In this document: positions 38,078 to 59,537 of the stretch, one piece after another
How positions within the stretch are numbered: position 1 is the stretch's first letter
Layout: the number at the start of each line of letters is the position of its first letter
The notes under the pieces: generated by a model
Database searches by the model: none
The model's input: only the letters and a program-made list of their open reading frames with translations
What the model was told of the DNA's origin: nothing
Made by a program: the position numbers and the translations under genes
Source: Dactylellina haptotyla
Taxonomy: Eukaryota; Ascomycota; Orbiliomycetes; Orbiliales; Orbiliaceae
DNA length: 64,000 nt
Assembly: GCA_031310005.1 (NCBI GenBank)
Contig: CM062387.1
Span: 1,922,001 to 1,986,000, forward strand
Reading direction: 5' to 3'

Positions 38078-41000
38078 TCATTCATTTTCGGGTGTTACAA
38101 TTTTACTGCGCGGTATCGAATCAAGCCTAGATTAGGTTAGCAAAGAAGGTTCGAGGAATGGAATCAGAAGTACATACTTAATGTCACATTCGAGAGTTTT
38201 AAGCGGCGCTCCTGTAGCTTCCCCTGTTATTAGGACCCGATTGGCTACCGAGAAACTGTCTGCCGTAGGGTGGGTTTTCCCAGCTATTTCATCGCTGGTG
38301 GGCTGGCCTTGTGGGCTGGCCGTGGGTTCTACGACTGGTTCTGGCTTCTTGACCACAGAACCGGTTGCTCCGAGATAGAACTGAGTATCTTTGACAGTAG
38401 TCTTGGCTTTATCAATGACCGGATCAACATCAACCACGTAAGTTCTGATAAAGTCTTTCGCCTTTTCCACCATGAGCATCCAGAGTGTTTTCTGAGATGG
38501 CAAATGGGCTTCGAGTAAAGCAACTATGGCCACGGCAAGGGCGATCTGAGGCAGTTCGACGGTATCCCACAGTCCGCAGTCCGCTTCAATGTCCGTGCCG
38601 ATCTTTTTAATCGTATCCGAGAAATCGAGTCCTAGGAAATCGGCGATCTCCGCGCTCGGAATATCAAATTCACCATCGAATTTCTGGAAGGCGAGAAGGC
38701 GGGTGACGAACATCTGTTGGCATTTCTCTTCGGAAACGGGTCCGATGATGATGGGTGCCGGGTTTTCGACATCATACAAAGCTGAACGAGCTTTCAAGGC
38801 AGCTTCAAGCTGCCTATCCGAGTCCCGGCTCCGTCCTCCATAATGGGTTGGTGTAGTGTACTCCATACTATAAGGACCACGGCTGGGAACTAAGGAGTTC
38901 AAATCTACTGATTTTGAAATATCACAGAGGCTAAAAGCGTCAAGCAACGGGCCGCTTTGTCTGTTCTTGAAAGACTTTGGCTGACCAACATGCTCACTCA
39001 CCATATTAGAGCCACTATCCTTTGGTCTTTGAACGGAGGGCAACTCCACGTTAATAAGGGAATCTAGAAAACTTCTAGCTCTACTTTCAGCATCACTATC
39101 CCTTGCTGACGCACAATTCCTTTGACGCGAAAATTCTCTAGGTGATATCTCTTTATATTCTATGACGTGTGCTGATATTCGAGCGTCAAAATCATCCTCA
39201 CGAAGCCTTGCTTTAGATCTCGGCCGCGTTGCAATGATCTCTGGCGGCGTTGCCCGAGGCTTAGTATCACTATCGTCCGTCGTATTCCCCTCCAAATAGC
39301 CGATTTCGCTATCGTGGGGGATGAAATCAGAATCATCTCCGCTAGTCGAGTTCCGGAAGCCTCTGATAATGGAACTGCGCCGTTCACTTGGTGCTTTGCG
39401 ATGTTTGTGTGCATCGACTGGAAATCTCTGAGTGTCTAGACCTCCTGCAATAGAAAGGCCATCGAAGCTTTCGTTACTACTAGACCCATCGATAATATTC
39501 TCTTTCGCCCCGCCAGTCGACCTCCCCGATCTCCCACCGATGGATTGATTTACAATACGTAGGCAGCGCTGAGCCTTAAGTGCATTCAGTCTTTCTCTTT
39601 TAGCATTAATGAGAGATTTATGGTTTTTGACATCCGACCCACTTCGGGAAGGAGGAGAATTGGATCTGTATGCAGATGCGGAATCGCGGAACCCATCACA
39701 GCCGGGGTCAGACTCAGACTCAGACCCAAACTCATCGTATTCGGTCATGAAAGCATTCGGCATAGCCCGACTTGAACGCGAATTCCGGGGAGGACTGGGC
39801 TGTTTGTTGAAAATTTGTTAGTCTATCGTTTCAAAAACATTTGGTTCGAATAATTAGAACGTGAAGTGCTTACTCGTGCGCGGTCTCGAGCTCTCTTGTG
39901 GTGGCTAGATCTTAGCTTTACCAAAAGAGAGTCAAGCATTTCGTTACGACTGGACCCATCAGACCCAGTTTCTTCTTCGAAATCGCTTGATGCATCGCTG
40001 TCGTCACCACCGAGGGCGCCCAGGGCCATCCCTGACATTGGTATTGCTAGGTCAACTTCTTCGACGGCGACGAAATCGTCATCCGCTATCTTTTTGGCCG
40101 GTGCTGATTCAATCGTGTTCTCAGTTGAAGCCTCTATACTTGCAGTTCCTGCCGTTTGCGTTCCTCGAGGCGCTAACAGCAGGTCAGAGTCGTCCTTGAA
40201 GGTAGTCTCAACAAAGATATCTTCATCGATAAAAGCGTCGCGACTGGCGTCTTTTGCTTCAAACTGTTCTTCAACGGCGACGAAGCTGGTCCATTCGGAT
40301 ACAAGGGACCACTTGCATCCCAGACGCTCGCCTTCATCCTTCAATAGTGCTCTCCTTTCCCGAGAGCTTATAGTTGCGCCATCATGGTTGAAATTCATGT
40401 GGCATTCTCCACGCCCTAAACCTTCCATCAAAGCACGAGCCGCTAATTTATGTATGGTGCTGTCTGGGAGTTTCAGGTGTTTAATCGGGACCCATTTAGT
40501 GACAGGATCTCTTCCAGGCTTCGATATAATGAAGTTGATTCCAGAGAGCGGGTACTTAGGCTCCAAAGATTCGAAAAGCATGAAGATCCGATTCCGCATG
40601 AAAGGGCTGGAATCTAGGCCCCTCACCGGGGATTGCATCATCTTGCAGCTTTGGACCAGGTAATTCCTTTTTTGATCTAAAACTTATCCGTTAGTTTCCA
40701 ATTTTCCCAAATAGCCTTTGTGGGATTCTATTCACCTGATTCCGAAGTCGCATCTTGCGTATCCCAGTCTTTTTGGTTGTCTAGCTTTATGTCCACCACG
40801 TTTACATGCGGTTTAAGAGCGGCGCTCAAAGTAGCTACAACTCGGGATTCCCACCCTCCTTCGCGCGCGAGCGGGATGATCTCCGAATAGCCACCACCAC
40901 GCTTGGCGATGCCTTCTACTAGGGCGTGCGATACAGCATTACCAATACCGAGACAGAAGAAACGAACTCTTCCTTCTGTTTTCTTCGCTATTTCTTCAAC

Positions 41001-42497
41001 GTAGTCTAGGGTATTTTCGAGATTCCACACTTCGCCATCAGTTAGAGTGATAATATCCATGCTTTGGAAGTTCCCTTTAGCAGCAATGACCGCTTTCAAA
41101 GCTGGCAAGAGATAGGTGCCACCCATGTTTGAATGGAAGTCTGATCTGACATGTTCCAACGCCTCTTCGAGATTCCCGCTGGTGTAAGCGTTAGATTCCT
41201 CCCAAAGACTTTCGTAGTTGCTTCCGAAAGAGAATATATTGAAATGGCGTTCCTTGGGGATACCCTTCAAGAAGAACTCCATGGCCGATTTAAGCGGGGC
41301 GATTTTATCGCTCATTGAGCCCGATCTATCAGCCAGGAATATGATCTCCCCGTCGCTTACGGTTTTCTCACCAGAGATTTCTCTAAGCAGGAATTCAGGC
41401 GGGACAGTAAGCATAACGGCTTTGTGGTTTGTAAATTCCGGATGGGTCTCCACGAAAGCTTGTGGCTCCTCAAGACTGGCCTCCGGTTTTGTTTTGATGC
41501 GTAGCTCAAAATCTTTATCTAGATGTGAAAGAGTCTGTCCGAGACGGACGTGGGCGGATTTGCCATTTCCCTTTTGTTCAGCTTGAAGGAACTCTTCCCA
41601 AGTTTGACAAACCCTCTCGCCCGCACCCATCTCAATAGCAACGTCGTGAGTGGCGCTCTCAATTGAGAGTATATTCTCCGGTGCGAGGACGTCGATGTCG
41701 ATGCTCAAACTATTGAGTTTAGCTGATTCTCCGAGCGCTTCGGCCACCCCAGGCGGTGCAGTACCGAAGCGGGGCGCGATATAAACGGGCAGCCTGAAAG
41801 TGGTAAGACCGTTTCCCTCCTCGAAATTATAGGGCAACAAAGCGATGAAGGATATCTCCACCTTGAGACGACAGTGCGCCGGGATGTTACCCAAGGTGGT
41901 CGTAAAGATTTCATCGTTTTGCTTTTCGAGCAAACCGGCGGACCTGTATTGTCTAACCGCATTGTTGAATGTCTCCACCGCCTTTTTCTTGGATTCCACT
42001 TTCCCCTTGAGGATTTTATCTTTCCCCAATCGACAAACAAAATCCGAGACAGTGCAACCTGGGGGAAGAGGGAAAGTGTAAGACGCCTTGGGAATCACGT
42101 GGTCGTTCTCATTTAAGAACAAGTGGGTGACAGAAACCTTTGCAGTATCGTTGATTATGCGGGCATCGATTGAAGCGTGAAGGGGGGGTAAAAATCCTTT
42201 CCGCGGAACCTGTGGCGGCGTATATTGTGGTGGTGGTGGTGGTGGTGGTGGTTGATATTCAGGTACTGGAAACGTTACCGCCTCAGCGTCTTGCAGCTCT
42301 CCCCTTCTTGGCCCTCCGTAGTACGGTTCTCTATCTGTTGCAAGATGAGCGGCGAATGTCTGAAAGTTGCTCCCGCGCCCGGGGTATTTGTGGGAGTCCT
42401 CAGGTCGCTGTGACACCCATGGTGGTAGTGGTTCACGGGGATCGTATTTCCAACTTATGCCCGGCCCGCGATTTAATCTTATTTTGTGTGAATACAT
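38078..42497 (-). CDS. VIT and von Willebrand factor A domain protein
   Basis: Four exons: 42497-40736, 40676-39874, 39799-38178 and 38126-38078, giving 1411 aa with the frame closed throughout. After a Pro-rich N-terminus (PEYQPPPPPPPPQYTPP) comes the VIT domain (KVSVTHLFLNENDHVIPKAS, YTFPLPPGCTVSDFVC, NIPAHCRLKVEISFIALLPY). The VWA domain follows at about 385-560 with a complete metal site: DRSGSMS, GGTYLLPAL and TLTDGEVWN. The middle is acidic and disordered. The C-terminal region (LLAFQKFDGEFDIPSAEIAD, VAIVALLEAHLPSQKTLWML) is the helical tail found in this family. The last small exon is chosen because GCTAACCTAATCTAG is a good branch and acceptor; otherwise the protein ends 15 residues differently. 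Intracellular, role unknown in fungi. Confidence 0.88.
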
Positions 42498-43302
42498 TAC
42501 AGCTCTTTTTTCATTTAAATGTGCAAGAGTTAAAGCAGGGCCTCAGATTATCACCTAAGTACTGTGGTTTGTTTGGCCTGGGAATTCGGATTCGAAATCG
42601 TTGGGTTTTGCGTCCCTTGTGCAATTGTGCTTTCAAGCTCGAGCGTGAACGTCGGACTGGTAACAATGATAATTGGTCGTAAGATATTATATTGGGAGCT
42701 GCCAAATTATAAGATCCTGAGGGCGCCGATAGAACTCAGTCGATTTAACCTTTCTCCAAGAGAGCTTATTTATAGGAGGCCAGAAAATCTTTAGATAATC
42801 GGAGAATCTTCCGTGCGGTATATCATGAGGCTGAAGGATCCAAGACCCTAGTCTCAAACCCACACCGAACCGCGAAGAGCGAAGACCCCGCCTGAAAAGT
42901 CTTCTGAGAGCAACACATTCGGGCCATCACAGCCTCACTAACACTGGAATTAGCAACTTCCGATTTGCTGGAAAGCCTTGCATTTTCTCTCGCGTCAGCT
43001 ATATCAGCGAATGCGCGGTGGTGGCGGTCCAGTCTTGGCAGGCATGATGGCCAATAAGAATACCGTACATCTGGCTTGGCTATGCTGCGCATCCCAAAGT
43101 AAGCGTGGAACAGCGAGTCGTGACGAATATCTGCAGGAATCACCCCGAATACGCAGCCTGAACAGTGGAGTTCACTTCTTGTATTCGAACCGTAGAAATC
43201 ATATATAAGATTTTGATGTTGTGGAAGCAGCCGTGTAATCAACCTTCGTAACTGTGCCCCGCGCGCATTCTGACCACAACAACAAAACTCATATCACCAA
43301 AA
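42498..43302. other. Divergent intergenic region
   Basis: Promoters of the VIT-VWA gene and of the 10-exon orphan. A 139-codon minus-strand ORF at 42823-43242 lacks any recognisable feature and is not called. Confidence 0.5.
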
Positions 43303-45834
43303 ATGGCGTCTCCAGTGTCTATCGGTGATGCCTTTCTCCTGGCCAAGCTCGCATTAGTTCTTGGTCAGGCATTCACAACTGGTAGAAAATCAGCGCCGGC
43401 CGAATTTCAGGAAGTTGAGAGCCAGTTATACTCGATCAGCACAGCGCTCTCGGCCTTGGACGTTGCCTGCAAAAACGGCAGTATAGCACTCAATATCGAC
43501 AGCTCGGGTTTACCCTCCTCTTTAGAATCCCAACGCAACAAGGCCGACGATGCATTGGTATCCATGCTGCAGGGGTGTCAAGATATGCTAAAACACTTAG
43601 AATCCGTTGTCGAAAAATACAGCTCTATCAATGAGCCTGAGAAACGGGGTATCTCGAAAACAAGGAAATGGACGAGCGAATTGAAAAGAAATTGGAAGAA
43701 GGTTTGGTGGACAACCGAAGGCGGGGACTTAGCCGCTCTTAGGCGCAGCCTGGCCATTCACGTCAACTGTCTGAATCTAGCGTTGGGGGTTATCAACAAG
43801 TGAGCCTTCCTGAAATATCCTTGCGGATATTGAAAGTAGGGTCTTACGCTTTATACTAACGGGAACATTAGCACACAAACTGGCAAAGTCGGGGCCCAAG
43901 TAGACCATGTTTCGGTTATGCTAACGGAGATTCATACCTGGTTTGTTGACAATATCAAAAATCCGAGGACGGGCACGCCGTCCATCGACCAACGAATAAA
44001 CGCCCTCTCTGTAAACGACGGACCGCTAGCCAATATTCAATTCGAGCTAGTTGAAGAATCGTCGAATGGTCAGACGGTTCTCTGTCCCAAAGCAGCCGTT
44101 GATTCCAAATGGAATCAGGTCAAGGATGGGGATCCCCAACCAAAATTGTTCCACTGCAATTGTGCTGCCCAACCCGGTCAACCTGCTCCCCACCACTTTC
44201 AACTTGACTCTCTGCAGTGTAAGTATCATATACATATAGGGCTATTATATTGTCAAAGTTAATGCCTCTTTAGTGTCGCCTGTTAGCTTTGCCTTACGGC
44301 ATACTGGGAATATAAAATCTTGGATGGTTTATAAAGTGGCAAATAGAGCCACAAATAGACTTGCATCACTAACTATCAAAAATGTTCCAGCTTCTCGTTA
44401 GTCTCTTATATATCTTGATACATTGATTTTGGTGGTCTGGCCTGCTAACAGTCTTTGTAGAAATCCATGATTTTGAAGCACATTTCATCGATCTCTTGGC
44501 ATCTATCAGAGCTAGACTGATGCTCAGACGTGGAGGTACTATGTTAGCATATACGATGCCAGGACCGGCGGAAAGTGAAGAAGCCCGGATTCTAAATCTC
44601 ATGAGGTTGGTCAAGTTGATATTTTAATCTAATCACGTTGTCATGATTGCTAACGACTGTCAGTGACATGCAAAAAACCCAAGGACAAGTTGACAAAGTC
44701 ACTTTCACTATCAACCGCCAATCATACTCGCGTACTGGTATTGAAGCCATTCAGCTACTCCACTATAAGACTCTGAATAAAGAATATCGAACTGTGGACT
44801 TTGCAATCTATCCAAAAGATTTATTACCGCTAAATACCGCAGAACTGGTGATATCCTATAAACCGAAGTCTTCAGGTGGAGATATAACAAAGACGGTGTT
44901 GTACTGTAAGTAGACCAGTTTCAAGTTGTTTATATGATACTGAGATTTTAAATAACAATGAGGCAACTTAGTAACTCACAAAACGGTCGTTAAGTACCTT
45001 GCGGCGACTAATAGCGTCGTCTTGGATCAAGTTGATTGTGCTGGACTGACACCGGGCGATCAAGAGAGTATATTGCGAGGAGTAGATGTGTCCATTCAGT
45101 TAGCTTCCACTGAAGGTAAATTCTGAAGGCATTATTCCTTTAGTATCTGCGATAAAAGCTAATGATTGGTACAGCGGCTCTGGAGCTAAGGAAGAAACTC
45201 CAAGACATGAGAGTAGAACTCTTCGTTATAGCATTGAGAGCGCCACGGGACGACGAAAGGATTGCGTTGAAGGTGTGAGTGGTTTCACCTATTTCGTCCA
45301 ATTTTCTTGATGATTCTAATGATTACAATAGACAGTGCAGAGGCTTCCATACTGAGAAGGTAGATATCGTCGGCGCCGATGTTTCGATTCTGCAATCGGA
45401 AACATCTGGTCGTTTAAGACTCGTTGTTGTAAGCAATGACGAAGCAACCATTCTAAGTCAAGAGCGTAAGTTGACTCGACTTATCCGATCTATATAGACC
45501 TCTTTGATATGGCTAACTTTGGATTCAGTGGCAGAAAATTTTATGGTGGCCGGAGAACGACCGACTTTCACCTCGCCAACACACGTGGTTCAAGTGTTAG
45601 ACTATGGTACGCGGGAGATTCGGAAGCACGACAACGGATTCAACTTTGTTGATTTTTCGGACGTATATGGTAAGTATCGTACCAGAAATCGTTATTCAAA
45701 ACGAGCGATTCTAATGCGCTATCCTATGTGTAGTGGACCGGCTCTTTAGCTTAGGTCTTGCCGCTTTCTCAGGAAACGAGGTTCCTGCGGGACCGATATC
45801 ACGAAGCTTGGATGCTTCTGGCGATACAGAGTAG
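43303..45834 (+). CDS. Ten-exon orphan protein with fungal N-terminal helical domain
   Basis: Exons: 43303-43799, 43872-44218, 44274-44396, 44461-44605, 44664-44905, 44972-45115, 45175-45274, 45332-45465, 45529-45669 and 45734-45834. Every junction keeps frame, giving 657 aa. The N-terminus (MASPVSIGDAFLLAKLALVL, then QAFTTGRKSAPAEFQEVESQ, LYSISTALSALDVAC) is like the helical N-terminal domain seen on fungal STAND/NLR-type and related hypothetical proteins. Downstream parts (SPVSFALRHTGNIKSWMVYK, IHDFEAHFIDLLASIRARLM, KVTFTINRQSYSRTGIEAIQ) form mixed alpha/beta domains without known motifs. No P-loop, signal peptide or membrane segment is seen. An immune-type or self-recognition role is speculation from the N-terminus only. 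Confidence 0.72.
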
Positions 45835-46048
45835 TATCAGGCGTAGTTTCGTTAGTACATAGAGAGCATTTCTGGATATAAACTTTGTAAAATTTTCCGT
45901 ACGAGTATAGGGTGTTTTATAATGTATAATTGCGTTATCGGTTTCCATGATCTCATTACACCATCTCAAGGAACCTTTCAACATTGCGTATTCCTAAACT
46001 TCTCCCCGACTCCAGATCAGCCATTGTTATATTTTATCCTCTTTTTTG

Positions 46049-47149
46049 CTAGTCCGAGAAGTAATCAATGGTTTCCTGATCAGAATATGCTTCGGCCCCA
46101 GCTTTCATATTAGCACTAATAATAAATTCACCACTGCAAGGATCTGTGACAATATCCTTCAGTTTGTCAGTTAAATCGAGTTTGTTTTTGGAAGGCCCAA
46201 GAAGCTCCAAGTCCTCAGACTGGGTGTGAGTACCGCCGATGGCCAATCGTTTAATAATGACGGATGTCATGTCACCAATTTTAGTCTCAAGACTGGTGGT
46301 AAGCGAGAGTTCGTGGCCAGACCAGAACTTAATGATAACTCGCATTGAATCGGCAGAATTAATTGCATTGCTACGCGACTTGAGTGGTAGCATTACACCA
46401 GGAGGCAATTGGACCTGAGAAGATACACGTCCAAGTAACTTGTTCACCGAGATAGTTAGTTTGTTTCATCCGAAGAGCATCCCTTGCTTAAATGAAGTTC
46501 AAGTTCTGGGCTTTTTGAAGAATATATTTGCTTTTAGCGTACCTCGATGCCAAAATATGCCCCATCAGTATCAGGATCACTCGAACCTCCAGAAGTCAAC
46601 GAAGCGGTGCTATACATCATCTTCGTGCCGTTTGTATTCAAAGTCGGATTATCGTTAGATATCGGTGAGTCTGATATATCAATCAAAGTAGTATCATTGA
46701 TTTTCTCAGACCTCGTTTGATAGACTAGCTTGTCACCTGGTGATTTTATCGGGATGACCGCTTTTGGGCGAGGATTAATTGGGGCTCGTTTGTTAGCGGG
46801 GTCCGTCGAAGCTCTTTCGATCAAATGCTTAGGGATAAGGCCCTTCGGATAGTCTATGTATATAACATCTCCTTCGAGGACGGCATGCCATGTCTCCGCA
46901 ATTTTCCCGCCGCGTCTAGCTAGCATCGAACTTATATGCATGCTTGTCATCTTGGACACTTTTTTCATTACATCCTGCATGGATTTGTATTATGAGTAAA
47001 GGTGAGCCAAATTTCGAGGGTATAAGAGGGCTTGAGGCTACCAATATGTTCTCTACATCCCCTATCTTTACCATCTTCTGAGAGATGTTGGGGATAACAA
47101 CGCCGACAGTAACTGGTGACGATACGTCAAAACTGGCTGATGAAGACAT
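46049..47149 (-). CDS. Paralogue 1 of a three-gene family, two beta-grasp-like domains
   Basis: Exons 47149-47042, 46974-46543 and 46414-46049 give 301 aa. Exon 1 ends with VTVGVVIPNISQKMVKIGDV-ENIL and its phase-0 intron falls at the same place as in the genes at 47624 and 49207. The next segment DVMKKVSKMTSMHISSMLAR...ETWHAVLEGDVIYIDY aligns with DVLERVLEKN...IFEKIPIGDIVHLHV of paralogue 3. A low-complexity linker follows, then SMRVIIKFWSGHELSLTTSL...LGPSKNKLDLTDKLKDIV, which has the strand-strand-helix-strand order of a ubiquitin-like fold. Most diverged of the three and reverse in orientation. Function unknown. Confidence 0.62.
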
Positions 47150-47623
47150 TCTGTAGGAGCTATTCAATATCCAACGAGGCTGATGACTTGGTGACAGCAA
47201 AGAGATCCCAGGGGAGCGAAGCCGGAATGGCTCCCTTTTGATTTTTATCAGGGCGCGATGATGAAACGAAGTCCCAAAGAACGGAGTTGCTGGTTCATAT
47301 GCCGATGGCAAGCGTGCAGAGTGTTGACCAACACATTGAATTCTATTCAGTTGCACCGAAAACGAAGTATCTGTGGCTAGCCGTCAAGCTTTACAAATAC
47401 GCTTTGAGACGATGCGAAATGCCCAGTTACATGTTTAAAATACCTTCGTTGCGCGCATCAAATTTATACTTATAGCCCAATCACTCCATTTCTCGCTCCC
47501 TTCACATTTCTTTTTATACATCTCCTTCACTTCTTGACCAATGTTGCCATAGTATCAGAGAGAGACAATAACATATTTCCATCATTTCAACTATATTCAC
47601 ACCACTCAATTGCGGATATCATA
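47150..47623. other. Divergent promoter between paralogues 1 and 2
   Basis: 474 bp shared upstream region, pyrimidine-rich near 47485-47525. No ORF of note. Confidence 0.55.
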
Positions 47624-48811
47624 ATGCATTCAAACAGTCGCGAGAAAAGAGAGATGCTAGGAAACTCCAATAGACCTCATCCTAATGGACAGAGAGTCGG
47701 CATCACGATCCCCATCATCTCCAATAGGGTTCATTGGTTTGAGAACGTTGAGAACCTCAAAGTAAGTTCACGAAAGGATCACAGATACGGTCATCAGTAT
47801 TCCGGAAATAAGTACTAATTTCTACTGCAGGGTCTCTTGGACGGTGTGGTTTCACGTAATCCAATCCTAGAGCCTAAACGGATCTCCATCCTCATTGATG
47901 GAAAGAGAGGCATGCTGTATGACCCAATCCCACCTGGATCCATACTCCAAGCGCAATACTTTTTCCACCAGATTGGGGCTCACGGGAACCAGAGAAAAGG
48001 AGAACCGGTGAAGGAGCCAGCAGAGATCCCAAGGCTTCATGCAAAACACGATCTTCCTTCAAAGCCTCCAGCTCCCATAGCAAATTTGCCTTCAATAGAA
48101 CATCCCAATCCAGCTGATTTGCTTCTCAAGATGGTTAACGACAAGCAGACTATGTTATCACAGGATAATCAGGCAGTCCTCAAATTAGAAGGGGTAGAAG
48201 ATCAAGAAAACAAAGGATATCAAAATGAATCGTTCATAATCCGCTTCAACATCGAAACGGTCTGCGGCAAGGGCCCTGTCGATGTTAAAGCGATGCCCGA
48301 CTCTATCATTCGTGGTTACTACAGCTATATTCGCAAGATCCTCCTTCAGAGACAATTGATTCACCCAATGGACAGACTCCACTTTGAGTGGCCGCAAGTC
48401 CAGAATAACCCTACTTGGAGTGACACCGTGTCGGATGTCATCGAGAACACGCCAGCTGGAATCAACACATTCATTGTCGATGTTACCAAGACAGCTTTCA
48501 ATCCCAGTGATCCCGTCACTAATATCGTTAATTCCGTTATTAACGGGAAATCAAAGTCATTCACCGATCTTACCAAGAAGAAGTCCATAGTCTACAACCC
48601 TCCTGGTGTGAGTGCTTCGTCTTCTCAAACTGCAGTGTCTACCCATACTGAGACAAAAAATATACAGGAGACGCCAAGCCCATATGTATTACCATTGCGT
48701 CAACCTACCAAACCGGAGCCCACACCTGCCGTAAAGCCTGAAAGAGAGAAGAAGACTGTGGTGTCAAACTGGGAGAGCGAGGATCTTATCGATTTTAACA
48801 TTATTCTTTAG
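47624..48811 (+). CDS. Paralogue 2 of a three-gene family, two beta-grasp-like domains
   Basis: Exons 47624-47761 and 47831-48811 give 372 aa. Exon 1 carries the family signature QRVGITIPIISNRVHWFENV-ENLK. Exon 2 begins GLLDGVVSRNPILEPKRISI-LIDGKRGMLYDPIPPGSILQ (helix, strand, strand). A linker of about 80 residues follows, then the second conserved domain: SFIIRFNIETVCGKGPVDVK, IRGYYSYIRKILLQRQLIHP, DRLHFEWPQ, GINTFIVDV. The C-terminus is a disordered Pro/Thr-rich tail ending with an acidic and hydrophobic motif, WESEDLIDFNIIL, which could be a binding peptide. No enzyme motif, signal peptide or membrane helix. Confidence 0.7.
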
Positions 48812-49206
48812 TACATCTGCTTCCCCGATTTTAGCGCAAACTCATCTCAAAGCTCCACCGTTCACCATCTTGACAACACGCTCGACATTATCATTCATTT
48901 TACTCCATTTCCTCCTATAATAACCCCTTATTTTGTATAGGTAGCTCACAATTAAGACAAATAAACCACCAGATATTCCCTAGTCCATTCAAATTCGATC
49001 ATCGTCTATATAAAGAGTCCCAGTACCCGCACTAAGCTTCTGATGTGCCACACTCCTTCTCCAGGCACTCAGCATACCCACCTTCAACTCCTTGCACTTC
49101 TATCACCACTCTCCAGAAGCCATATCTTCATTCCTGCTTGTACAATCTCGTATAACTCGCCAATTTTATATACATATATTTCACTAACTCATAGCGGTAT
49201 CGTCTA
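48812..49206. other. Spacer between paralogues 2 and 3
   Basis: 3' flank of one gene and promoter of the next, with TATATACATATA at 49167-49178 about 35 bp before the ATG. Nothing else seen. Confidence 0.55.
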
Positions 49207-50551
49207 ATGAACTCTATCAACGGCAAAGTTGGGGTTGTCGTCCCTACTCTCTCCGACAAAGTTCACTGGCTTGAGAATGCCAGAACTGTCCAGGTATAGT
49301 GTTTTCCGATACCTCTGTAGCTTATAGGGTAAACAAGAGCTCTACTAACTTTAACCAAAGGATGTTCTTGAGAGGGTCCTCGAGAAGAACAGCTTCTTGA
49401 CTCCTACTCAGCTCTCTGTTTATCTTCACGGCCGTGTTGCAGGAATTTTTGAGAAGATTCCTATTGGAGATATTGTTCATTTGCACGTAACCCTAGGAGA
49501 TTCCATCCTTTGTCACCCACAAGGGTCCTTCAAGATTGTCATTTCGTCCTCCGAGAACTCGTCAAATGGGAACGATTCACTACCAAAGAATCCGTCAGAT
49601 CGCGAGCCTCGTCGGCCGATCTACCCAGACTACTACACGCCTTCTGGGTCTGGATCCCAGCTTCCACGCCTCGAGCGACAAGAACAACGTGCTAGTCCTC
49701 AACCCCCAAGATTCGAGACCCGAGTTGGCCCACCGGTTGCACCACGAGGTTTCTCCACCAGATACGCCCCAAGAGCTACCATAGCAGGCAGAGTCCACCG
49801 TCGCGTTGTCGGAAGGATCAAGCAAAAGACTCTCAACCGAGACCGCAAAGTCCTTCTCCGTTTCCACCTCTTCGAGTTTGGCGAGCACACTATCGAGCAA
49901 TATGCTACGAACCACGAGCCGCTCCGAGTCCATTTCAATATCATCAAGAAGAGGCTTTTGCAGCTCAAGTGTCTCCAGAAGGACGACGAACTTGATTTCC
50001 ACTGGCCGCATCTCCGCTGGATCCCCAAAGGGTCCACTCGCGTGGTCGACATCCGCATCGGAGAGAACAAAGGCTACGGGTGCTTCGTCAGAAAGCGTCA
50101 GCCGGCGCCCGTCCGTGTCACCTCTGACGATGAGGATTCTGTCAGTACCGGATGCTCAGAAGAAGAGGAGGACACCGATAATCGCAGCGAAGCCACTACC
50201 CCTCCCGATCGTGAAGTTAATGACGAGCTGGCAAACGGCAGTGCTGACCACTACGAACCTGAGGAGGACCTCGATATCTACCAAGAGCCCAATCTCATCG
50301 ACGAGGAACAAATCGACTATCAGTTCAACGAGCGAGATAACCGCTCGCGTTCCACCACCTACTCGTACTCAAGAGACTACTTGAGCACCTTTAACGACCC
50401 ATACGATGGGCATGCACCAGTTACAAGTGGAAATGTTAACTGGGCCACGCCTCAGGACGCAACAAACAACTGCCGCGACTCACACGATCAAGTTGAAAAC
50501 CTGGAATCTCGTTACAACGATCTCGATCTTGTTAATTACGAGGTGGATTAG
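49207..50551 (+). CDS. Paralogue 3 of a three-gene family, two beta-grasp-like domains
   Basis: Exons 49207-49293 and 49361-50551 give 425 aa. Exon 1 holds GKVGVVVPTLSDKVHWLENA; the phase-0 intron follows RTVQ. Exon 2 continues DVLERVLEKNSFLTPTQLSV-YLHGRVAGIFEKIPIGDIVH-LHV, i.e. hairpin, helix, two strands, in the style of ubiquitin-like, PB1 or doublecortin folds. A linker leads to RKVLLRFHLFEFGEHTIEQY, LRVHFNIIKKRLLQLKCLQK, DELDFHWPHLRW, STRVVDIRIG, matching the second domain of paralogue 2 (DRLHFEWPQ). The tail is very acidic (SEEEEDTDNRSE, YEPEEDLDIYQEPNLIDEEQ). Function unknown. Confidence 0.72.
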
Positions 50552-51069
50552 GAAATCCAGTCGTGAAAGGGCGTTGCGTTGCATTTTTGTTCTAAAATTT
50601 ACGATTAGTCTGACTTGAAGTCTTGGATATCATGATCCTGAACTCATGATATCGGCCTGTTGTTTATTTAATCATTACCATTCAAAAAGGAAGAAATTTT
50701 GATTCCTTCTAAGGAGTTTGGGTATGTCAATTTTCTACGGCTGGATCAGGAAACTTCGGAAGATATCTCGAATCAATGCAATGGCCATGTTCATGCTTCC
50801 AAAATATTGGCTAGCTTTAGTTCTTGATCGAAAGCTAGTCTGGCGACTATTATATTTCGAACATAACAATCTCTCTGTTTCTAATAAATTCCTGGCCTTA
50901 AAATGGAATCCCACTGCAGAATTAGGATATTGGGTACGGTGCATAGTTCTGAACGTATATCCCCAAAATTGTGTTGACGAACCTCATTTCGACTTCTCAA
51001 CATTAACATCATCGCCATCTTCACGATAACCAACTTACCAATCAACTTTTATGCACTCTGACGAATAAC
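50552..51069. other. Intergenic, nothing firm
   Basis: A plus-strand ORF at about 50724-51029 (YGWIRKLRKISRINAMAMFM) has no supporting feature. ATGATATC-rich inverted sequence near 50628-50655 (GATATCATGATCCTGAACTCATGATATC) is a short imperfect hairpin in the 3' flank of paralogue 3. Confidence 0.45.
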
Positions 51070-52242
51070 ATGCTCTCTTCTCTTAAAGAAGCGGAGAACC
51101 TCCCAACTCCCCCTCCCCCCGAATTCAAGCCATCGTTGACTGTATACGCCCATAAGATCGCTACCCAGATAACAGAAGTTCGCTCCCTCCTCACCTCATC
51201 TCTAGCCCATATTGCAGAGGACCGAGGAGCCCTTCATAAAACCATTGAAGATACGCGATCTCTGATAAACGGACATGAGCTTAATAATGCAAAATTTGGA
51301 AATATCACAGAGACGATAGATGGAACCGGTGTGCATTTCTGTTCCGCTATCCAACCCTAGAGCGGAATATACTAATATCATACAGTTAATGAGCTGAAAA
51401 CCGTTGTATCGTCCTTAGAACAGTCTCTCGCGAATGAAGATACAAAACGAACGCTTCTACATGATGAGATTGCTGCTCTAACAAACAAAATGGATTCACA
51501 GGACACTCTTCTTCGAGAACTTGTTGGCGATCTAAAAGATATGGCGGAGGCGCAGAAGAATACTTTGTTCGTACTTGGCAGTATTCTCAAGCAGCAACAA
51601 AGGCTTCAGAATCCACCGCAACCAATCATACAACCTACCGAAATACAAAAACAACCTGTTGTGGAAGATCCTTTACCTTTTCCAGTTGTCACGGATCAGG
51701 AACCTATTCTATCTAATGCCGAAACTGAGAGTAGTATCGATGTTGTAGCTGATACTCCCACTGCAGCAAAGAGACCAGGGAAAGCGATAGGCAAACCGAG
51801 CCAAGCACAAAGCGAGTCAAGCCAGTCTCAGAAGCCTCCAGCTCCTGTTAATAAGGGTCGAGTCCTACGGAGTGCAAAACGGCAAAGGAGTCTTAGTCTC
51901 GGTCTGGTTGTTGAAGCTACCCCAAGCCAAACGTCGGTTCAGCCATCCGCCAGAAATCCACCACGAAGCCAGCAGTTGGAGCCCTTCTTATCCGAGAGCA
52001 TGATCGTTGAGTTCAGTCCGGACGAGATGAGTGTTAAATCCGCTCAAAATACACAGGTTGGGTCTGGCGATGAAGATGAGATAAAATCAGAGGAAAACTC
52101 AGAGAGGGTTTTTACCTTCTTTAGTCCTGTCAATGATCCCGTTATTCGTGAACCAGTTACGCCAGAGCCGCAGCCGAAGAGGAGAATATTAGCTGGCCCG
52201 GCGACTCAAGAAGCGTGGGAGAGGGATAGTTCTCTTAGTTAA
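51070..52242 (+). CDS. Coiled-coil hypothetical protein with disordered tail
   Basis: Exon 1 is 51070-51328 and exon 2 is 51386-52242 (intron GTGTGC...CTAATATCATACAG), giving 371 aa. Residues about 20-165 are helical with coiled-coil spacing (YAHKIATQITEVRSLLTSSL, VNELKTVVSSLEQSLANEDT, LRELVGDLKDMAEAQKNTLF). The rest is low-complexity and Gln/Pro/Ser-rich, with basic patches (RVLRSAKRQRS) that could be nuclear signals, and an end PKRRILAGPATQEAW. No known domain. Confidence 0.6.
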
Positions 52243-54505: not shown

Positions 54506-57286
54506 CTACTTCCCATCCATGCTCCCAAACCGATTCGACCTAAAAAACCGCCCAAAATTCTTCATGCTCTCGTTCAACCCGGCCACGCCTTCCTTCATCC
54601 CATCCGCTACATCCTTCACCCCAGCGTTCAACTGCACCGTACTAGCACCGGGACTACTCGCCGCGGTACCCATACCCCCCGTACCCGCATTACTAGGCGT
54701 ACCTAACCGGTCCACGCCTTCCTTCATACCCTGCATAAGTGCATTTCCTAACATTGCCGCATCAAACTTCCCAGTGAGGCCAGGGGATATCACCAACCCG
54801 CCGGGTCCGCCGGATATACTTATCCCTGGTGCCGTTAGACCGCTACTCTGGTTATTAATGTTACTGACGTTGAGGAGGTTCATGATAGGGTTTGCTTCTG
54901 GTAAATTATCATATGCAGCCTTGTGTGCGTGGAAGAGCTCGATACGTTCGGACAAGTCCCGGCCTTTGATGTTTTTGATGTCGAGGATTTTGCGGAAATT
55001 TTGTTCGGATTTGTCGGCGATGTGGATTAAGTAGGCTTGGACTAGGCCTTCGGGCGGGGAGGAGCGGACTTGGATTACTTTTAGGACTGTGTCGATGCGG
55101 TTTATTGCGCGAGAAACGTGTTTGATGAAACTAGTGAAGGGTATTAGTTAGATAGATAGAAAACGAAGGAGTTGTTCGAAGAGCATACGTTGTAGGAGCG
55201 GTGACGCCTTCCTCAGCGGTGAGGGTCATCAGTTCTTCGAGGCACTTCTTTATCGAGTATACATCGAGTAGCATCTATATAACCGTTAGTCATGTACTCA
55301 GAACATAACAGATGCGAACGTGACTTGCCTGCTCGGCGCCAACCTCTGAAATAGGTTTACACGCCATGAGATTCGCCAAGATAGTGTTCGATATATTCTC
55401 AACCAAGCGATCGCAGAAAGCGCGCTTATACTGCTCCTTGACTATTAAGTTCAACACTTTCTCGGCTTGCTCTTTAATAACCCGGATGAGCTCTCCAACA
55501 TATGTGCTGTGGTCTCCGACAGTCTCTAGTTTGCTCCACGGTGTATTTCGCATCTCCCTCCAAATCGGATCCAGTTCAGCTTCTACCTTTCGTGTCAGAG
55601 CTCTTATGGCGATACTGACAACACCTATAAACGTATCCTGCTGCTTTTCCATGTTAACTTTGGCTTTGAACTCCTCATCGATCCGGCCTTTTATGCGGTC
55701 CTCTAACTGCGAAGTCAGCGCGTGGCAGTAGTCTGCCGTATTCAGAACCGTAATGATAGTTTCATCGTTAGGTAGCATCATCCCGGGTTTGTCTGGGAGA
55801 TGGTAGAGCAACACGGTATCCGCATAGCCATCGAGGTACTTTGCAAATATCATCGACAAGTCGTACAGCTTGCTTCCTGCAGAAAGCTTAGCACACTGCG
55901 CGAATGTGACCCTATAGAACTGGAACAGCTCGATCGATGATGCCAGGACGGCGGAGGTATTAAACTCGTCATCCGGAGGGCGGATAGGTTGCGATCTGAA
56001 GACCGGTAATAGATTGGATAGCGTCTTTTCTTGAGAATCCACCCATAGACTTAGGTAAGGCTCGAATGCTTCGGAGATTGCCTTGCCGAATATCAGTGGT
56101 CGGTCGTCCCGCGAACTGACGGTGTCGATGGAGACTCTACTATCCACGGCGAATCGCTTTTCGAGATACTGTTCAAAGTCGAGGGTTTCTTGAAGACAAT
56201 TGAGGAGGAGATTGACGTCGAGGCTCTTGCCGCCGTCCATCCGCATGGCTTTGACCAGAATGCCCTTGAAGTCCTCGCGTGTGTTGTCACAGAAGGTCCG
56301 AGCAAGGATCTCACCTACCCTCCAGAACGAGGGGAATATGTAGATGTGTTCTTCATCATACGTTTTCAGGATACGTTTCAGCCAAGCGTAGCGACGGGAG
56401 ATATTGTCCAGGGAGCCAGCTTCTTCGCTACCACGGAAAATTTGGCGGTATTCGCGAAGCTGGGTGTTGCAGAACCAGTTGATAAGTCGTGTTCGGGCGC
56501 TGTCGCCGACGGCATCCATGACTTCACAACCTTCTGAGAGCATGGCACGTCGAAGAGTGACTTCATCCTTTGTGAAAGTGATCTCAAAGTCCTCGCAGAC
56601 TTGTTCGAGTAGCTGGGATTGGAGTTCGGCAACATTGCGACTGAGGGTGGCGATTTGGTCGATGGAGCGGTATGATCTGAAGTGGGCCATGAGCTGGATG
56701 ACCGCCTGTAGGAGCTGTGCGCAGTCTCGGTATTGACGGAATTTTGTTTGCGCCTTCAATTGCTCGAACGCAGTAGCTGTATTCGTTCTTTGTTAGCTTC
56801 GATTGATCGTCTACGGAGAGTCCCGTGAGGCCAACTTACTCAGCATCTGTAGTCGCTTCAGTGCCGTCATTGATACTGTTAGATTCCGCTTGGTGGAGTC
56901 CAGACGCTTGATATCGGCAGTCATGGCGGTGATAGCCTGCTCCGTAGCTATAGCTCGGCCCCTCACCGTCTCGATGTTCTTGAACAGCTCGTCGAGGTCG
57001 GCCTTGGCAGCGGCGACGCGCGTGACGCTAGAGGCATCCGAGATGGCCTGGTTCGCGACCAGCGTCCGGATATCATCTTGGAGATTGGAGACATGGTCGT
57101 TTAGGGAGGAGGATACGGAGGGGAGGGCGGACAGAGAGCCGGGCGTGGCGAAGATGTCGTTCAGGTGGGCTACCGGGTCGTAGTCGGCTGTCGAAGCTCG
57201 GGTTAGCTCGCCAACGGGAGCACAGACGAGAACAAGGGGAGGAGAGTACCTGAATCTAATGGATCACTTGGGGCGACTCCATTCAT
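54506..57286 (-). CDS. VPS53: GARP complex subunit Vps53
   Basis: Five exons: 57286-57250, 57187-56840, 56776-55329, 55274-55189 and 55130-54506, giving 847 aa. The N-terminal coiled coil starts SADYDPVAHLNDIFATPGSL and DDIRTLVANQAIS, then VRGRAIATEQAITAMTADIK, the conserved Vps53 signature. The core has QYRDCAQLLQAVIQLMAHF, LKRILKTYDEEHIYIFPSFW and KYLDGYADTVLLYHLPD. The C-terminal part has IKHVSRAINRIDTVLKVIQV and a variable Gly/Ala-rich tail. It tethers endosome-derived vesicles at the trans-Golgi with Vps51, Vps52 and Vps54. The third intron (55328-55275) starts with GC, not GT (CAG|GCAAGT...TATATAG), and is needed to keep frame. Confidence 0.95.
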
Positions 57287-58668: not shown

Positions 58669-59537
58669 ATGGCCACCGCTACGGCAACGACTACCGCCAC
58701 GGTGGACTCGCTCATGGAAGATTCAAAGCCTACTCCTGTCGCGGACGTAGTTCAAACACCGTACTCCATGAACAAGTCCGCCAAATTCAGCTTCCTCCCC
58801 TTCCTCAAGAAAGAATACCGCTTCGGCCTCGACCCCAACCGCGAAGTCTGCCGTCTATTCCTCGCAGGCCATTGCCCGAACGGCAATGCTTGTCCCGATA
58901 GACACACAGTCGGTACAGCAGGTCTAAACAAGTACGCATCTTCACTAACTCTTTACATCCACATTCTTATCATCTACTAACACGTTTACAATGAGCGAAC
59001 AGTCTAGTATGCAAACATTGGCTGCGCGGCCTCTGCAAGAAAGGCGACGCCTGCGACTTCCTCCACGAATACAACCTCCGTCGCATGCCCGAATGCTCCT
59101 TCCTCATCCGCTACGGCTACTGCCAGAACGGCGACGACTGCCTCTACTTCCACCCGGACCCTGAAAACCGCATCCCGCCCTGCCCAAACTACGATAACGG
59201 GTTCTGCCCGCTGGGACCTACGTGCTCAAAAAAACATGTGCGCAAGACTATTTGCAAGTTTTATTTTGCGGGGTTTTGCCCGGATGGGCGGGAGTGTACC
59301 TGGGGCGCTCATCCGAAGTGGACGCGGGAGGTGCCGGAGCCGATTCCCAAAGTTGAGGGAGAGCGGAAGAGGTATAATGAGAGGGATGTGACGGATGACG
59401 ATATGGGAGTCAAAGGGAGGAGGAAATTCCAACACCCCGATGGCAGGGGTGATAGAGAGGGTGGTGGTGGGCAGGGCGGGCAAGGTGGCCGACGACGGTG
59501 GGGCAAAGGGAACTACCAAGACAGAGAGAAGAACTAA
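58669..59537 (+). CDS. YTH1: mRNA 3'-end processing zinc-finger protein Yth1 (CPSF30)
   Basis: Exon 1 is 58669-58931, the intron 58932-59002 (GTACGC...CGAACAG) and exon 2 is 59003-59537, giving 265 aa. Five CCCH zinc fingers follow one another: [81 protein letters not shown] and [21 protein letters not shown]. Number and spacing are those of Yth1/CPSF30. The C-terminus is Gly/Arg/Asp-rich ([20 protein letters not shown]). It binds the AAUAAA-region RNA in the cleavage and polyadenylation factor in the nucleus. Start ATG is preceded by no other in-frame ATG close by. Confidence 0.95.

What the first reader, a model, noticed from the sequence alone, without database searches (positions are those of the whole stretch)
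46049..50551. Array of three diverged paralogues with two beta-grasp-like domains each
Seen: the genes at 46049 (minus), 47624 (plus) and 49207 (plus) share a first-exon motif (VG-V/I-x-I/V-P-x-x-S-x-K/R-V-x-W-x-E-N), a phase-0 intron at the same place, a following helix-strand segment ending G-D-I-V-x-L-x-V or similar, a disordered linker, and a second domain with L-x-F-x-W-P in two of them. The strand-strand-helix-strand-strand order is ubiquitin-, PB1- or doublecortin-like. I know no described family with this double arrangement. Tandem duplication with inversion and fast divergence suggests a lineage-specific family under selection, perhaps adaptor proteins acting by domain pairing.
Basis: partly seen in the sequence, partly recalled or inferred. 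Interest (0 to 1): 0.75.

Follow-up and report, generated by a model that had tools for sequence, protein, structure and literature searches.

The report
Three-gene family with ubiquitin-shaped domains
In a fungus closely related to a nematode-trapping species, three neighbouring genes are old copies of one another and encode proteins with a ubiquitin-shaped domain at the front, a probable second one behind it and floppy tails, a family without a name so far that looks like a set of protein-connecting adaptors.

The parts
46049..47149 (-). Gene A, 301 aa, three exons 47149-47042, 46974-46543, 46414-46049 (alternative third-exon start 46438, implied by the held D. haptotyla H072_233 protein)
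   Evidence: spliced frame open; three pieces re-found by the D. haptotyla protein P0005 at 85-89% identity
46843..47116 (-). Gene A domain 1 (residues 12-80), interrupted by the phase-0 intron 47041-46975
46109..46348 (-). Gene A domain 2 (residues 203-282), suggested ubiquitin-like
   Evidence: 46 of 1000 shuffles reach its score to the D2 profile; in the orthologue predicted order E-E-H-E-E but block pLDDT 43-50 over its first elements and lower after
46672..46686 (-). LIDIS motif in the linker of A
   Evidence: pattern count
47624..48811 (+). Gene B, 372 aa, exons 47624-47761 and 47831-48811
   Evidence: re-found by D. haptotyla H072_234 (P0003)
47690..47980 (+). Gene B domain 1 (residues 23-96), with the phase-0 intron 47762-47830 inside
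   Evidence: BLASTP to C 4.7e-13; leave-one-out profile 0 of 1000; not modelled itself
48221..48499 (+). Gene B domain 2 (residues 177-269) with LHFEWP
   Evidence: BLASTP to C 3.3e-7; leave-one-out profile 28.5 bits, 0 of 1000; not modelled itself
48785..48799 (+). LIDFN motif near the C-terminus of B
49207..50551 (+). Gene C, 425 aa, exons 49207-49293 and 49361-50551
   Evidence: 92% identical to D. haptotyla H072_235 (P0001)
49222..49504 (+). Gene C domain 1 (residues 6-77), with the phase-0 intron 49294-49360 inside
49844..50098 (+). Gene C domain 2 (residues 191-275) with LDFHWP
   Evidence: in the orthologue predicted E192-198 E206-212 H217-230 E239-243 E270-274, block pLDDT 59-74 up to residue 240 and under 55 after it; 54 of 85 identical in A. 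entomopaga
50099..50551 (+). Acidic, mostly disordered tail of C, with LVNYE near its end (50528-50542)
   Evidence: pLDDT under 50 for nearly all of it in the orthologue; motif at residue 419

Best explanation
The three genes are old tandem duplicates (one in the opposite orientation) of a family seen only in Orbiliaceae. Each protein has an N-terminal ubiquitin-fold domain (D1), a flexible linker, a second and more divergent ubiquitin-like domain (D2; weakest in A), and disordered parts with a short L-Phi-[DNS]-Phi-polar motif. They most likely act as non-conjugated adaptors: the domains serve as binding modules, since neither ends in a diglycine or at the end of the protein, and the disordered motif docks a second partner. 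Shown: paralogy, gene structure, conservation, no curated family over cut-off. Predicted: the fold (D1 strong, D2 moderate, D2 of A weak). Inferred: adaptor function, non-conjugation, an intracellular location, any partner.
Against: No partner, expression or localisation data. The motif pattern was chosen after seeing the sequences: a tighter one that I tried first was absent from A, and I loosened it to take A in, so the shuffle figures flatter it. The strict clathrin-box pattern is met only in the two Arthrobotrys proteins, the autophagy-type pattern I tried in none. D2 was not folded by itself and its second half has block pLDDT under 55. The A. conoides relative lacks D2 (228 aa), so two domains are not kept everywhere, unless that gene model is incomplete. 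The models rest on five sequences. A fold alone shows no function.
Confidence: 0.5

Rival explanations
1. D1 is a diverged member of the ULD_2 ubiquitin-like domain family (PF22893), so the array is a local outgrowth of a known domain rather than a new family.
For: ULD_2 copies of this genome (matches at three places) have a phase-0 intron just before the presumed first helix, at the place that by eye corresponds to the D1 intron (two junctions computed; a third, L019, read by eye). Of 26 matches of the canonical ubiquitin profile in this genome, 12 end or begin at profile positions 51-57 and 6 begin at 10-17 (one is in both groups).
Against: Pfam does not report ULD_2 for A, B, C, their D1 and D2, or five relatives at E up to 10, though it does for L019 (E 1.3e-6). 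hhalign gives E 0.43 for D1 and 0.66 for D2. Against two ULD_2 sequences the D1 profile gave no score for one and a score reached by 298 of 1000 shuffles for the other; D2 118 and 566 of 1000. The ULD_2 alignment held only three sequences. The intron control is not clean: two of the 26 canonical matches begin at 19 and 23, close to the D1 intron place, and match ends are not proven introns.
Confidence: 0.25
2. They are transcription co-regulators: the domains bind a nuclear protein and the tails, studded with acidic and hydrophobic residues, act as activation domains.
For: C is acidic (67 acidic, 53 basic residues), with a basic stretch before D2 in C and in the A. entomopaga relative (sequences); motifs of acidic and aromatic residues in the tails of B, C and A. 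entomopaga. That such tails can activate transcription is general knowledge, not a call.
Against: No DNA-binding or other nuclear domain over cut-off in Pfam; B is nearly neutral (43 basic, 41 acidic), A slightly acidic (32 and 37).
Confidence: 0.2
3. D1 is a Ras- or Rap-binding type ubiquitin fold, and the proteins are effectors of a small GTPase.
For: A sub-threshold Pfam match of C D1 to the Raf-like Ras-binding domain (E 0.16, 12.3 bits, profile positions 18-49 of 69).
Against: Below the cut-off of 25.7 bits; the A. entomopaga D1 instead matches ThiS (E 0.033) and A's D1 a winged-helix family (E 0.16), also below cut-off; the whole-genome RBD search gives two weak matches, both elsewhere.
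Confidence: 0.08

Closest known systems
RENi family (Rad60, Esc2, NIP45)
   Same: Proteins with two SUMO-like domains proposed to act non-covalently, with a polar low-complexity region (PMC549199, abstract and outline); the second SUMO-like domain of Rad60 is among the fold matches of the A orthologue (3rcz_A, rank 36)
   Different: RENi has both domains at the C-terminus; here D1 is N-terminal, D2 follows a linker of about 80-120 residues, and in B and C a tail of about 100-150 residues follows. Rad60-SLD profile matches in this genome all lie elsewhere; many of them are the same places as ubiquitin-profile matches
ULD_2 (PF22893), a ubiquitin-like domain
   Same: ubiquitin-like class; phase-0 intron before the presumed first helix in this genome's copies
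   Different: no sequence match of D1 or D2
Ubiquitin, NEDD8, SUMO, ISG15 (modifiers)
   Same: fold of D1; ISG15 also has two ubiquitin-like domains (recalled)
   Different: only 10-22% identity over the 50 listed VIA rows of the C model; no terminal diglycine; long disordered parts

Membership tests
Ubiquitin fold (beta-grasp) | strand-strand-helix-strand-strand order and superposition on ubiquitin (D1) | tested here: met
Ubiquitin fold (beta-grasp) | same for D2 | tested here: inconclusive
   element order right in both models, but block pLDDT 44-74 in C and at most 50 in A; the listed VIA rows are filled by D1, with one C row (2y5b_F, linear diubiquitin) reaching into D2 at rmsd 15.4
ULD_2 (PF22893) | profile match over the curated cut-off | tested here: not met
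   no match up to E 10 for A, B, C, for nine D1 and D2 pieces, or for five relatives
ULD_2 (PF22893) | phase-0 intron before the first helix (seen in this genome's copies; not part of Pfam's definition) | tested here: inconclusive
   intron present and phase 0 in D1 of A, B, C and in two computed ULD_2 junctions, but the correspondence of the places was set by eye
RENi (Rad60-SLD, PF11976) | two SUMO-like domains at the C-terminus, Rad60-SLD profile match | tested here: not met
   no match of the proteins in Pfam; none of 15 whole-genome matches lies at this locus; D1 is N-terminal
Ubiquitin-like modifiers | C-terminal diglycine at the end of the domain | tested here: not met
   no GG in B or C, and A's three GG are not at a domain or protein end
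Raf-like RBD (PF02196) | profile match over cut-off | tested here: not met
   12.3 bits against a cut-off of 25.7
   no Pfam match; neither is among the 50 listed rows of each fold comparison, which does not exclude them

The most novel reading that the evidence does not exclude
A previously undescribed, Orbiliaceae-specific family of non-conjugated double ubiquitin-fold adaptors whose disordered parts carry clathrin-box-like docking sites, with three anciently split types kept side by side, wiring membrane traffic or protein turnover in a lineage of nematode-trapping fungi.
Probability: 0.12. Interest if true: 0.6.

Novelty: new variant of a known kind. Interest (0 to 1): 0.36.

Why it matters
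Nematode-trapping fungi hold many genes without homologues or Pfam domains: about 20% of genes are shared between the two trapping species compared and up to 16% are unique in each genome, and a large part of these have no homologue in nr (PMC3828140, passages seen). This array turns three such genes into a testable family with a predicted fold, conserved modules and a candidate docking motif, and suggests that the type is older than the genera rather than a recent burst. The shared intron place also gives a lead on how an orphan ubiquitin-like domain might descend from a known fungal one.

Tried and rejected
Family and sequence searches. Pfam, NCBIfam with the five relatives and PDB sequences with the alignment, the D1 and D2 profiles and P0001 gave no accepted family. 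Weak matches taken as chance: FeoB_N in the tail of B (E 0.024); Lipocalin_10, CB_ParB_C and Nop14, one relative each (best E 0.034, 0.062, 0.83); HTH_65 for A's D1 (E 0.16); four PDB chains for the D1 profile, three of them amylase regulator CcpA and one a pseudouridine synthase (E 0.92-1.1). A DNA search of the phage collection gave no match; it says nothing about fungi.

Links not shown. ULD_2 by profile failed. D1 against D2 of the same family gives no convincing similarity (hhalign E 0.027 over 8 columns; shuffles reaching the real score 411, 39, 217 and 502 of 1000 for D2 of C, A. entomopaga, B and A), so descent of D2 from D1 is not shown. Positive selection could not be tested: only proteins of the relatives were at hand. 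The D1 tree has one starred inner branch of four and long branches, so the age of the B/C split is probable, not proven. The search with alignment A1 listed two proteins and not P0001, P0002 or P0004, which are rows of that alignment, so its sensitivity is limited. PB1 and doublecortin are not in the listed fold rows, which excludes nothing.

Motif. A first, tighter pattern ([DE], L[LIV], any, [FY], [DNE]) was found in B, C and both Arthrobotrys proteins but not in A, and its shuffle counts count some sites twice; I then loosened it.

Papers. Searches for the three H072 tags (no paper), 'ubiquitin-like domain' with Arthrobotrys (one listing, not opened), ubiquitin-like domain with NACHT, fungi and ULD (none), and two ubiquitin-like domains with fungi or lineage-specific (six of 5,212 listed) showed no description of this family; nor did the listings. 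This covers only the held open-access library.
Full report
What is there. The window lies in an unnamed 39.8 Mb genome of 11 contigs, at C9:1922001-1986000. It belongs to a close relative of the nematode-trapping fungus Dactylellina haptotyla: the protein of gene C is 92% identical to H072_235 and that of B 87% to H072_234, and H072_233 matches A at 85-89% piece by piece. I rebuilt the three genes from the sequence. A is on the minus strand (exons 47149-47042, 46974-46543, 46414-46049; 301 aa), B on plus (47624-47761, 47831-48811; 372 aa), C on plus (49207-49293, 49361-50551; 425 aa). The held D. haptotyla proteins read through the first splice junction of each gene in the same way; for A they imply a third-exon start 24 bases earlier.

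Is the paralogy real? Yes for D1 of all three and for D2 of B and C. BLASTP of the spliced proteins gives 4.7e-13 and 3.3e-7 for B-C and 1.1e-5 for A-C, but only 0.04 for A-B. Leave-one-out profiles scored against 1000 shuffles put all five D1 sequences tested (A, B, C, A. entomopaga, A. conoides), and the D2 of C, B and A. entomopaga, beyond every shuffle; D2 of A is reached by 46 of 1000. The first intron is phase 0 at the same column in the three genes.

Who has it? Three protein searches (with C, with B, and with an alignment holding all types) returned five different proteins: three of D. haptotyla (H072_233, 234, 235, all listed with a contig of 604,706 bases), one of Arthrobotrys entomopaga (C-like, 491 aa) and one of A. 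conoides (B-like, 228 aa, no D2). That both genera are Orbiliaceae is recalled, in line with the paper listings. One source's name for the C orthologue begins 'Ubiquitin-like domain-'. In the own genome four protein queries matched this array only, apart from one match of chance level for A's linker (E 0.68); introns and the scoring limit make these counts lower bounds. No Pfam family reaches its cut-off, and the five relatives have no NCBIfam match.

Is it evolving fast? The evidence points the other way at short range. Against D. haptotyla, D1 is identical at 65 of 72, 74 of 74 and 68 of 69 positions in C, B, A, and D2 at 82 of 85, 89 of 93 and 72 of 80, while the linkers keep 101 of 113, 60 of 80 and 104 of 122. 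In B and A the domains are clearly better kept; in C, D1 (90%) is hardly above its linker (89%) and below its tail (92%). Against A. entomopaga, C keeps 33 of 65 in D1 and 54 of 85 in D2 but 22 of 108 in the linker, gap columns left out. B and C share only 22 of 73 and 21 of 79. The D1 tree joins A. conoides with B (support 84/98) and leaves A. entomopaga nearest C by path, with long branches; the simplest reading is a B/C split before the genera parted. A paper on this species under its older name Monacrosporium haptotylum (that equation is recalled) proposes, for infection-expressed small secreted proteins, tandem duplication followed by rapid divergence governed by repeat-induced point mutation, and reports that expanded families hold copies too diverged for that mechanism to recognise (PMC3828140, passages only). 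That would fit old, diverged neighbours without special selection; whether these three proteins are secreted was not tested.

A shared short motif. Outside the domains, all five protein types carry L[LIV][DNS][FIY][DNES]: LIDIS in A, LIDFN in B, LVNYE in C, LINFD and LISFD in A. entomopaga, LLSFD three times in A. conoides. Shuffles give 1.5-2.8% per protein, and 0 of 5000 joint shuffles had it in all five. I wrote the pattern after seeing the sequences and loosened it once so that A was included (a tighter one missed A), so these numbers are a description, not a test. The strict clathrin-box pattern (recalled) is met only in the two Arthrobotrys proteins, and the autophagy-type pattern I tried in none of eight sequences.

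Origin. ULD_2 is a ubiquitin-like domain with matches at three places in this genome. Two of these genes have a computed phase-0 intron just before the presumed first helix, where D1 has its own, and a third seems to (L019, read by eye). Of 26 canonical ubiquitin-profile matches, 12 end or begin at profile positions 51-57 and 6 begin at 10-17 (one in both groups), but two begin at 19 and 23, near the D1 intron place, so the contrast is suggestive only. No profile comparison supports the link. I hold it as a lead. The RENi family is the closest described double arrangement (PMC549199, abstract and outline), but fails on architecture and profile.

Verdict. A real, unnamed family of predicted ubiquitin-fold proteins, seen only in Orbiliaceae, most likely non-conjugated adaptors. 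The fold part is well supported for D1; the function is inference. It is a good orphan-family finding, moderate in interest, and a variant of a known kind rather than something categorically new.

Noticed in passing
43252-45840 (+): The upstream neighbour begins with a helical segment that matches the SesA N-terminal domain of fungal NACHT/NTPase proteins below the cut-off (E 4.4e-4, 20.8 bits against 26.3). Further exons and the end at 45840 are by eye.
   Followed up: partly
51067-52242 (+): Downstream gene whose N-terminal part looks like a coiled coil (by eye) with a long tail of low complexity; no Pfam match reaches its cut-off.
   Followed up: partly
P0004 residues 123-149 (Arthrobotrys conoides): An 11-residue unit (DLLSFDE[VI]P..) repeated three times in tandem in a relative that has D1 but no D2.
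   Followed up: partly
40728-42539 (-), 54509-56792 (-), 58995-59534 (+): Neighbours with known domains: a VIT/VWA protein, Vps53 and a CCCH zinc-finger protein, so the array sits among ordinary genes.
   Followed up: partly
L019 (C8:1529788-1529898): A divergent ULD_2 copy that also seems to have a phase-0 intron before the first helix (junction read by eye).
   Followed up: partly
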